Shown piece after piece: positions 45,931 through 47,438 of a DNA stretch of 64,000 nucleotides. Location of the stretch: the NCBI RefSeq assembly GCF_014863355.1, contig NZ_JACZEP010000001.1:1178001-1242000 (forward strand), written 5' to 3'. Numbering within the stretch: position 1 is the stretch's first letter; each line of letters begins with the position of its first letter. The notes below the pieces were generated by a model, which ran no database searches, was not told where the DNA came from, and worked only from the letters and a program-made list of their open reading frames with translations. A program made the position numbers and the translations under genes. Source of the stretch: Aminobacter carboxidus. GTDB taxonomy: Bacteria; Pseudomonadota; Alphaproteobacteria; Rhizobiales; Rhizobiaceae.

Positions 45931-46521
45931 ATGACGAGACGTTCGATCACCCTGTTTGCCGGCCTCGTTTCCGTCATGGTCGGCGGTCCAGCCACGGATC
46001 GTGCCGCTGCCGCAGTGGCCATCGACATCTGCCATGGTTATGGCTGCGCGTTTCGTTCGCGCCTCGATCTTGGCGCCGGCGAAGACAGAAAATTCGCGTC
46101 GATCCTTTCTGCCGGCCGCGCTTCGCCCGAAGCCGAGCGCAAGGCGATCGCCAAGGCGGTCAGCTATTTCGAGAAGCGGGCGCAACAGGTGACCGGCGTA
46201 CGCGACCAGCCACGTTCGGAGTTCGGCGCCTCGAAAATTCGGGGGCAGATGGATTGCGTCGACGAGTCAAGCAACACTGATGCGCTGCTGCGCTATCTCG
46301 CGCGTCGCGGCCTGCTCAGGCACCACAAGGTTGAAGCCAGGGATTCCAGGGGTTTCCTGCTCGATGGCCGCTATCCGCACTGGACGGCGGTAATCCGGGC
46401 ACCCGACGGCGTCAAATGGGTGGTCGATTCCTGGTATGCACCAATGGGTGGCGCGCCCGACATCATTCGGCTCGGCGACTGGAAGTCACGCGGCGTGCTG
46501 GAAAGCGGTGCGCTTAACTAG
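45931..46521 (+). CDS. Secreted hypothetical protein with possible Cys-His-Asp triad
   Basis: 196 residues with an N-terminal signal peptide (SITLFAGLVSVMVGGP, cut before about residue 29). Cys109 (GQMDCVDES), His150 (RYPHWTAVI) and Asp166 (KWVVDSWYA) have the order and context of transglutaminase-like or papain-like catalytic residues. Two further cysteines (34 and 39) lie near the mature N-terminus. I do not recognise the family by name; similar secreted proteins occur in rhizobia as far as I recall. It is a single gene; the RNA-rich locus on the other strand begins 40 bases past its stop. Confidence 0.7.
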   Translation: MTRRSITLFAGLVSVMVGGPATDRAAAAVAIDICHGYGCAFRSRLDLGAGEDRKFASILSAGRASPEAERKAIAKAVSYFEKRAQQVTGVRDQPRSEFGASKIRGQMDCVDESSNTDALLRYLARRGLLRHHKVEARDSRGFLLDGRYPHWTAVIRAPDGVKWVVDSWYAPMGGAPDIIRLGDWKSRGVLESGALN

Positions 46522-46561
46522 ACCGGATTTCTCTAGAGGTCGAAGGCCTGAACCAGGCTCC

Positions 46562-46668
46562 AAAACGACAACACCCGCCGGGGGAGGACCGGCGGGTGTC
46601 GTTTTGGGTGGTCAGCTTATCGGGAGGAAGAAGCTGACCTATTCGCCGTTGTCGGGGAGGAGGTCGAC
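46562..46668 (-). ncRNA. Anti-Shine-Dalgarno hairpin RNA, unit A (distal)
   Basis: Read on the minus strand this unit folds into three hairpins: GTCG/CGAC (46651-46668), GTCAGCTT/AAGCTGAC (46611-46638) and ACACCCGCC/GGCGGGTGT (46571-46599). The last is extended by AAAACG/CGTTTT and so terminator-like. The loops show CCTCCTCCCC, TTCCTCCCG and TCCTCCCCC, complementary to ribosome binding sites. It is the third copy in transcript order after the two DUF1127 genes and resembles CcsR/cuckoo small RNAs. Confidence 0.7.
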
Positions 46669-46714
46669 GCAGGCTGAATTCTGTTCGCCAGTCAAAGAGA
46701 ACTGGGCTCTCGGG

Positions 46715-46821
46715 GTAACAACACCTGCCGGGGGAGGAGGTCCGGCAGGTGTCGTTTTGGGTGGTCAGCTTATCGGGAGGAAGAAGCTGACCTATTCGCC
46801 TTTGTCGGGGAGGAGGTCGAC
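46715..46821 (-). ncRNA. Anti-Shine-Dalgarno hairpin RNA, unit B (middle)
   Basis: Same three-hairpin plan: GTCG/CGAC (46804-46821), GTCAGCTT/AAGCTGAC (46764-46791) and ACACCTGCC/GGCAGGTGT (46721-46752). In the last stem a C-to-T change relative to unit A (ACACCCGCC to ACACCTGCC) is matched by G-to-A on the other arm, a compensatory pair that supports selection for the fold. The loops again show CCTCCTCCCC or TTCCTCCCG on the minus strand. Confidence 0.7.
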
Positions 46822-46870
46822 GCAGGCTGAATTCTCTTCGCCAATCGAAGAGGGCGAAACTCTCCGGGGT

Positions 46871-46975
46871 AACGACACCCGCCAGGGGAGGAGGTCTGGC
46901 GGGTGTGTTAAGGTGGTCAGCTCATCGGGAGGAAGAAGCTGACCGGATCCGTCCAGGTCGGGGAGGAGGTCGACC
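46871..46975 (-). ncRNA. Anti-Shine-Dalgarno hairpin RNA, unit C (next to DUF1127)
   Basis: Hairpins GGTCG/CGACC (46956-46975), GTCAGCT/AGCTGAC (46916-46943) and ACACCCGCCA/TGGCGGGTGT (46875-46906), with minus-strand loops CCTCCTCCCC, TTCCTCCCG and CCTCCTCCCC. It begins 18 bases after the stop of the second DUF1127 gene in transcript order, so a shared primary transcript that is later processed is likely. It lacks the AAAACG/CGTTTT outer stem of unit A. Confidence 0.7.
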
Positions 46976-46992
46976 CTGACGGAAGCTCTGAA

Positions 46993-47133
46993 TTAGATAG
47001 CGCGGCGGGCGATCGACTGGATCTCGCCACGATTGATGCCGAGATCGGCAAGCTGGCGGTTCGACAGACGGCCAAGCTCGTTCACCGTCTCGCGATAAGC
47101 GCGCCAGTTACGGTAAGTGCGGAGCAAGTTCAT
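46993..47133 (-). CDS. DUF1127 microprotein, second copy
   Basis: 46 residues, MNLLRTYRNWRAYRETVNEL followed by GRLSNRQLADLGINRGEI and ending ARRAI. This is the DUF1127 pattern: a basic, aromatic N-terminal helix and the S-N-R-x-L-x-D-L-G-I motif. Arg-rich DUF1127 proteins bind RNA in Rhodobacter (CcaF1) and affect phosphate, carbon and stress functions in Agrobacterium. It is too short for many gene finders. It lies between the first DUF1127 gene (51-base gap) and the structured-RNA units. Confidence 0.9.
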   Translation of the reverse strand: MNLLRTYRNWRAYRETVNELGRLSNRQLADLGINRGEIQSIARRAI

Positions 47134-47184: not shown

Positions 47185-47325
47185 TTAGATCGCCTTGCGA
47201 GCGACGAAGTGGATGTCGCTGCGGGTAATGCCGAGGTCGGTCAGTTCACGGTTCGACAGGCGGCTCAGCTCGGAGACAGTGTCACGGTAGCGGCGCCAGT
47301 TGCGGTAATTGCGGATCAGGTTCAT
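47185..47325 (-). CDS. DUF1127 microprotein, first copy
   Basis: 46 residues, MNLIRNYRNWRRYRDTVSEL followed by SRLSNRELTDLGITRSDI and ending ARKAI. It is a close paralogue of the neighbouring copy, so a tandem duplication. AAGGG lies about ten bases before ATG 47325; the longer reading to 47421 crosses the promoter and is unlikely. It heads the minus-strand unit of two DUF1127 genes and three RNA units. Confidence 0.9.
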   Translation of the reverse strand: MNLIRNYRNWRRYRDTVSELSRLSNRELTDLGITRSDIHFVARKAI

Positions 47326-47370
47326 CTTCGTTTTCCCTTCGTCTTCTTTTCTCTTCTGTGTACGGGGCGT

Positions 47371-47399
47371 AGATAGGATGCCCTTGCCTAAAATTGAAG
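47371..47399 (-). promoter_or_regulatory. RpoH-like promoter for the DUF1127/RNA unit
   Basis: On the minus strand CTTCAA (47394-47399), a 17-base spacer and CTATCT (47371-47376). This is one mismatch in each box from the CTTGAA/CTATAT pattern of alphaproteobacterial RpoH. It leaves a leader of about 40 bases before ATG 47325. Confidence 0.5.
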
Positions 47400-47417
47400 C
47401 GCTATGCTCGCATGGCA

Positions 47418-47438
47418 GCAATGCGTTTTGTGCATTGC
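47418..47438. repeat. Inverted repeat upstream of the DUF1127 promoter
   Basis: GCAATGC (47418-47424), seven-base spacer, GCATTGC (47432-47438). It sits just upstream of the putative -35 box and may be a regulator site. Confidence 0.45.

What the first reader, a model, noticed from the sequence alone, without database searches (positions are those of the whole stretch)
46562..46975. Three-unit array of nine hairpins with anti-Shine-Dalgarno loops
Three units spaced 150 and 154 bases apart each contain the same three stem-loops. Read on the minus strand every loop carries a CCTCC core (mostly CCTCCTCCCC), able to pair with ribosome binding sites. The stems tolerate paired changes (ACACCCGCC/GGCGGGTGT against ACACCTGCC/GGCAGGTGT), which points to selection on structure. 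The locus lies downstream of DUF1127 genes, as do the CcsR1-4 small RNAs of Rhodobacter sphaeroides and, as I remember, the 'cuckoo' RNAs of Rhizobiales. Three hairpins per unit and three units in tandem make an unusually large set; it may act as a translation-titrating sponge.
Basis: partly seen in the sequence, partly recalled or inferred. Interest (0 to 1): 0.85.

Follow-up and report, generated by a model that had tools for sequence, protein, structure and literature searches.

The report
Tandem cuckoo small RNAs after DUF1127
This is a run of three copies of a known family of bacterial small RNAs whose hairpin loops can block the ribosome-binding sites of messenger RNAs, sitting behind two tiny protein genes in an Aminobacter-like bacterium; it is a good example of a known kind of locus rather than something new.

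Summary
The array is three tandem copies of Rfam family ar14 (RF02344; alpha-r14 or "cuckoo" small RNAs) on the minus strand, scoring 79.6, 69.1 and 54.5 bits against a cut-off of 58.8. The genus is inferred to be Aminobacter. The array starts 4 nt after the second of two DUF1127 genes and keeps its neighbours in 10 of 10 genus genomes searched, with three units in 8 and two in 2. Stems covary and loops are conserved. DUF1127 with cuckoo/CcsR-like RNAs is already named the "CIN1 locus".

Three units is not exceptional: two of 80 TrmFO-linked loci hold four and six. Nothing here supports a general translation sponge. Better supported: a DUF1127 transcript cut into ~120-nt RNAs whose redundant loops silence chosen mRNAs (inferred from papers on relatives).

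A useful extra: the promoter region matches two published LsrB/VtlR operator patterns, at about -70 to -57 from the predicted start, where LsrB binds at the alpha-r14 RNA NfeR1. This predicts LsrB/VtlR control of the whole operon. Expression was not testable.

The parts
47412..47434 (-). Predicted LsrB/VtlR operator: TGCA-N6-GCAT (47434-47421) overlapping GCAT-N3-TG-N3-T (47424-47412)
   Evidence: Sequence; both published patterns matched exactly here; the site is kept in the 10 genus loci aligned. Binding not tested.
47371..47399 (-). Predicted sigma-70-type promoter CTTCAA-N17-CTATCT; start expected near 47364
   Evidence: Read by eye; -10 identical in 10 of 10 genus loci, -35 in 9 of 10; the E. 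coli-type consensus scan found none.
47185..47325 (-). DUF1127 gene 1 (46 aa)
   Evidence: PF06568, E 5e-17.
46993..47133 (-). DUF1127 gene 2 (46 aa)
   Evidence: PF06568, E 6e-17.
46870..46988 (-). Cuckoo/ar14 unit 1 (first transcribed); hairpins 46948-46983, 46915-46944, 46875-46906
   Evidence: RF02344, 79.6 bits, over the cut-off of 58.8; folds; hairpins.
46716..46834 (-). Cuckoo/ar14 unit 2; hairpins about 46794-46832, 46763-46792, 46717-46756
   Evidence: RF02344, 69.1 bits; folds.
46566..46681 (-). Cuckoo/ar14 unit 3 (last); hairpins about 46641-46679, 46610-46639, 46568-46602, followed by a short T-rich stretch that may end transcription
   Evidence: RF02344, 54.5 bits, below the cut-off of 58.8 but E 6.5e-9 over all three hairpins; folds. 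The terminator scan gave no minus-strand site.

Best explanation
The array is the 3' part of a DUF1127 operon. Inferred chain: the LysR-type activator LsrB/VtlR binds at about -70 to -57 and switches on a sigma-70-type promoter; the transcript runs through two DUF1127 genes into three cuckoo units; RNase cleavage in the linkers frees ~120-nt RNAs; their exposed CCUCC loops pair with Shine-Dalgarno sequences of chosen mRNAs and block translation. Several units in series most simply raise the dose. Shown here: three units of a known family on the minus strand, with conserved structure, loops, gene order and operator-like sequence. From papers on relatives: silencing through redundant loops; co-transcription with DUF1127 and RNase E processing; LsrB/VtlR control of an alpha-r14 RNA and, separately, of small DUF1127 genes. 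Not shown anywhere here: transcription, cleavage, targets, protein binding.
For: Rfam ar14 matches. First unit begins 4 nt after the DUF1127 stop codon. Order DUF2157, DUF1127, DUF1127, array, ORF196, trmFO in 10 of 10 genus genomes. 28 genus units: 96.5% of cells paired, 9 of 31 pairs with changes on both sides, sliding gives 28-50% and 0-3. 33 wider units: 26 of 28 predicted pairs with a double change; entropy 0.11 bits in loops, 0.97 in stems. G-U over A-C 21 to 2 and 61 to 14 on the minus-strand reading. Of 80 TrmFO loci, 50 have a unit within 2.5 kb and 48 of those a co-directional DUF1127. LsrB and VtlR patterns in 27 and 20 of 48 unit-bearing loci against 72 and 110 of 4000 random stretches. 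Papers, passages: PMC10746234, PMC10253847, PMC7486931, PMC12595884, PMC11975290.
Against: No expression data. In S. meliloti only one of six NfeR1-type copies was detected by Northern blot in the conditions tested (PMC7143759, passages), so these copies might be silent. The other three ar14 copies of this genome have no DUF1127 within about 1.5 kb. The operator patterns are loose: in the window alone the LsrB pattern occurs 4 times and the VtlR pattern 11 times, and 21 of 48 unit-bearing loci lack the LsrB pattern. In 20 of 48 loci a unit comes before DUF1127, not after it. The R. sphaeroides operon uses RpoHI/RpoHII instead. Further pair types did not exceed shuffles (18 against 21.5). Another study favours protein contacts for DUF1127 (PMC12501420, passages).
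Confidence: 0.8

Rival explanations
1. A general translation sponge: the nine loops mimic the 16S rRNA tail and titrate ribosome-binding sites at large, damping overall translation under stress.
For: All nine loops hold CCUCC; loop sequence is far more conserved than stems; several copies per genome (6 here).
Against: The alpha-r14 RNA NfeR1 silences named mRNAs and is linked to nitrogen control (PMC10746234, passages). No dose or abundance evidence here. Unit number varies from one to six among loci, so nine loops are not essential.
Confidence: 0.1
2. A cis element: the hairpins protect or terminate the DUF1127 mRNA and have no role in trans.
For: The array starts 4 nt after the DUF1127 stop codon; strong stems.
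Against: A 3' protector needs no invariant CCUCC loops. In 20 of 48 loci a unit lies before DUF1127, and ar14 copies without nearby DUF1127 exist (3 of 3 others in this genome; 13 of 30 wider loci).
Confidence: 0.08
3. The plus strand is the functional one: GGAGG loops, terminators for ORF196, or the open frame 46436-46942.
For: Two terminator-like sites on the plus strand at third hairpins of two units; a plus-strand ORF of 168 aa is open.
Against: The family model matches the minus strand only; 89 of 89 matches in related loci run in the direction of trmFO; pairs vary through G-U more than A-C as read on the minus strand, though the structures were predicted on that strand.
Confidence: 0.02

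Closest known systems
Rfam RF02344 ar14 / cuckoo RNAs (SmelA075, NfeR1 of Sinorhizobium meliloti)
   Same: Three hairpins per unit, CCUCCUCCC-type loops, variable stems, several copies per genome.
   Different: Three units in tandem behind DUF1127; 4 of 9 loops shortened or altered to TTCCUCCC/UCCUCCC; the last unit scores below the cut-off.
CIN1 locus / CcaF1-CcsR1-4 operon of Rhodobacter sphaeroides
   Same: DUF1127 gene followed by a tandem run of anti-SD hairpin RNAs (passages).
   Different: Two DUF1127 genes here; three-hairpin units; sigma-70-type promoter by eye instead of RpoHI/RpoHII; CcsR1 model match 32.8 bits against a cut-off of 65.3.
VtlR/LsrB-activated small DUF1127 genes (Brucella, Agrobacterium atu1667)
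   Same: Small DUF1127-type genes with the same kind of operator (passages).
   Different: The passages I saw do not mention cuckoo RNAs behind those genes.

Membership tests
RF02344 ar14 / cuckoo | Score over the curated cut-off (58.8 bits) | tested here: met
   Met by 2 of 3 units (79.6, 69.1); the third scores 54.5.
RF02344 ar14 / cuckoo | Three hairpins per unit | tested here: met
   3 of 3 units.
RF02344 ar14 / cuckoo | CCUCCUCCC in every loop | tested here: inconclusive
   5 of 9 loops in full, CCUCC in 9 of 9.
RF02344 ar14 / cuckoo | Expressed trans-acting RNA | not testable with these tools
   No expression data.
CIN1 locus (DUF1127 with cuckoo/CcsR-like RNAs) | Short DUF1127 gene next to and co-directional with the RNAs | tested here: met
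   The paper that names the locus was not held; the definition is taken from PMC10253847, passages.
CcsR1 (RF02791) | Score over the curated cut-off (65.3 bits) | tested here: not met
   32.8 bits, one match.
LsrB/VtlR regulon | Published operator pattern upstream | tested here: met
   Both patterns, overlapping, at 47412-47434; both patterns are loose (4 and 11 matches in the window).
LsrB/VtlR regulon | Protein binding and activation | not testable with these tools
   Needs EMSA and a mutant; presence of an lsrB gene in this genome was not searched.

The most novel reading that the evidence does not exclude
LsrB/VtlR directly drives one operon carrying both DUF1127 proteins and a variable number (one to six) of cuckoo RNAs in Rhizobiales such as Aminobacter, Mesorhizobium and Aurantimonas. 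Part of what is credited to DUF1127 genes in that regulon would then come from the RNAs behind them, with unit number tuning the dose.
Probability: 0.45. Interest if true: 0.4.

Novelty: new member of a known kind. Interest (0 to 1): 0.25.

Why it matters
It turns a striking repeat into a named, testable locus. It shows DUF1127-cuckoo clusters upstream of trmFO in 48 of 80 Rhizobiales-type loci sampled, with one to six units, and it joins two literatures, LsrB/VtlR control of DUF1127 genes and of alpha-r14 RNAs, through one shared operator pattern.

Tried and rejected
A loose CCTCC-hairpin matcher did not separate signal from chance and was dropped. Weak Rfam matches to 6C, mir-BART12, CC3664 and anti-hemB were all below their cut-offs and were set aside as look-alikes. 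The E. coli-type promoter scan found none; the promoter was read by eye. Two searches for the 16S 3' end in this genome found nothing, so the match of the loops to its own rRNA tail is assumed. A third operator-like site (L152) lies before what I read by eye as a transporter gene; that locus holds a cobalamin riboswitch and no ar14 match; not pursued. Concerted evolution of units: mean identity of units 2 and 3 within a genome is 0.90, between genomes 0.82 (unit 2) and 0.84 (unit 3), but for 18 of 24 units the nearest neighbour is the same-numbered unit of another genome, so at most partial homogenisation; the two two-unit arrays were left out of the means and of the 24. PMC12218461 was opened for cuckoo, CcsR and anti-SD terms: none found. 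The 15-base operator core used was taken from these loci and is circular (28 of 48 unit-bearing loci, 2 of 21 others, reversed core 0 of 69); only the two published patterns are independent.

Full report
What is there. On the minus strand, 46566-46988 holds three consecutive matches to Rfam RF02344 (ar14). The first two transcribed (46870-46988 and 46716-46834) pass the curated score; the third (46566-46681) scores 54.5 against 58.8. Each unit folds into three stem-loops far more stable than its shuffles. All nine loops hold CCUCC; five hold CCUCCUCCC. The CcsR1 model matches once, weakly and below its cut-off.

Where it sits. The first unit begins 4 nt after the stop codon of the second of two 46-residue DUF1127 genes. 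The genus is inferred to be Aminobacter: genome G003 of the same genus has a contig of the same length (999,464) as the Aminobacter anthyllidis record of L064, whose TrmFO is 97% identical. The genome has six ar14 matches, three of them here; the other three have no DUF1127 within about 1.5 kb. In 10 of 10 genus genomes (this one included) the order DUF2157 gene, DUF1127, DUF1127, array, ORF196, trmFO is kept; 8 arrays have three units and 2 have two. Of 121 genomes searched in the family (this one included), 116 have a match at E <= 0.001 and 108 one over the cut-off; that search used stricter filters, which lose weak matches. Of the 30 wider loci fetched, 4 have DUF1127 upstream, 13 downstream and 13 none within about 1.5 kb (close matches only).

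Wider synteny. The two without are L069, cut off by the contig end, and L130. Unit counts: 0 in 30, 1 in 22, 2 in 23, 3 in 3, 4 in 1 (L135) and 6 in 1 (L113), the last two named Aurantimonas. In 28 of 48 loci DUF1127 comes first, in 20 a unit does. Three units is therefore not exceptional.

Selection on structure. On 28 genus units and 31 pairs, 96.5% of cells pair (0 of 500 shuffles reach it), 9 pairs have changes on both sides (3 of 500), and sliding the partners gives 28-50% and 0-3 pairs. One measure went the other way: further pair types, 18 against a shuffled mean of 21.5. The structure came from a unit of this set, which favours it, and the units are related. Across 33 units (3 of this array, 30 from the wider family) 26 of 28 predicted pairs have a double change. 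Loop positions carry 0.11 bits of entropy against 0.97 in stems. G-U exceeds A-C by 21 to 2 on the genus set, four pairs with poor alignment left out, and by 61 to 14 on the wider set. This fits the minus strand being the RNA, although the structures were predicted on that strand.

Control. Upstream of DUF1127 gene 1 I read CTTCAA-N17-CTATCT; in the 10 genus loci the -10 is identical and the -35 differs in one. Just upstream lies TGCACAAAACGCATTGCTGCCAT. It holds the LsrB site TGCA-N6-GCAT reported for NfeR1 (PMC10746234, passages) and the VtlR box GCAT-N3-TG-N3-T (PMC7486931, passages), and resembles the Brucella motif quoted in PMC12595884 (passages). LsrB and VtlR are names of one regulator (PMC11975290, passages). 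From a predicted start near 47364 the LsrB site lies at -70 to -57, against -72 to -57 for NfeR1. Of 48 loci with units and DUF1127, 27 have the LsrB pattern and 20 the VtlR box within 320 nt; of 21 with DUF1127 and no unit, 3 and 6; of 4000 random stretches, 72 and 110. Against this: each pattern alone is loose, with 4 and 11 matches in the window. A 22-base pattern made from this site, with up to three mismatches, occurs three times in the genome and its reversed control never: here, 57 nt before the stand-alone ar14 copy L001 (two mismatches, without the exact GCAT), and at L152.

Mechanism. Papers report that alpha-r14 loops are redundant and silence mRNAs such as ntrB at the ribosome-binding site (PMC10746234, passages); that the CcsR operon is processed by RNase E with the DUF1127 protein CcaF1, and that DUF1127 with CcsR-like RNAs was labelled CIN1 locus (PMC10253847, passages); and that RNAs with three and four such hairpins were suggested to be one family with a varying number of modules (PMC3927594, section 2.7). 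Against ready expression, only one of six NfeR1-type copies was detected by Northern blot in S. meliloti (PMC7143759, passages). Another DUF1127 study favours protein-protein contacts (PMC12501420, passages). I infer an LsrB/VtlR-driven DUF1127-cuckoo operon whose units act as separate silencers. A general sponge is possible but has no support here.

Novelty. The RNA family, its loops, its several copies and its tie to DUF1127 are in print. I did not find the joint statement that LsrB/VtlR drives a DUF1127-cuckoo operon in the listings of two searches of an open-access library that lacks the original cuckoo, CcsR and CcaF1 papers, so it may well be in print elsewhere.

Noticed in passing
45931-46521 (+): ORF196 has no Pfam match and lies antiparallel between array and trmFO in 10 of 10 genus genomes. 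In several Mesorhizobium loci the last unit ends about 75-160 nt before trmFO, leaving no room for it there.
   Followed up: partly
TrmFO loci L064-L143: Co-directional DUF1127 genes lie within 2.5 kb upstream of trmFO in 69 of 80 loci, with or without cuckoo RNAs; the reason for this linkage is unclear.
   Followed up: no
L113:5088-5893 and L135:2192-2687: Six and four tandem cuckoo units behind one DUF1127 gene in two records named Aurantimonas: larger sets than the one in the window.
   Followed up: partly
L152: An operator-like site resembling the LsrB/VtlR box before what looks like a transporter gene, on a stretch that also holds a cobalamin riboswitch.
   Followed up: no
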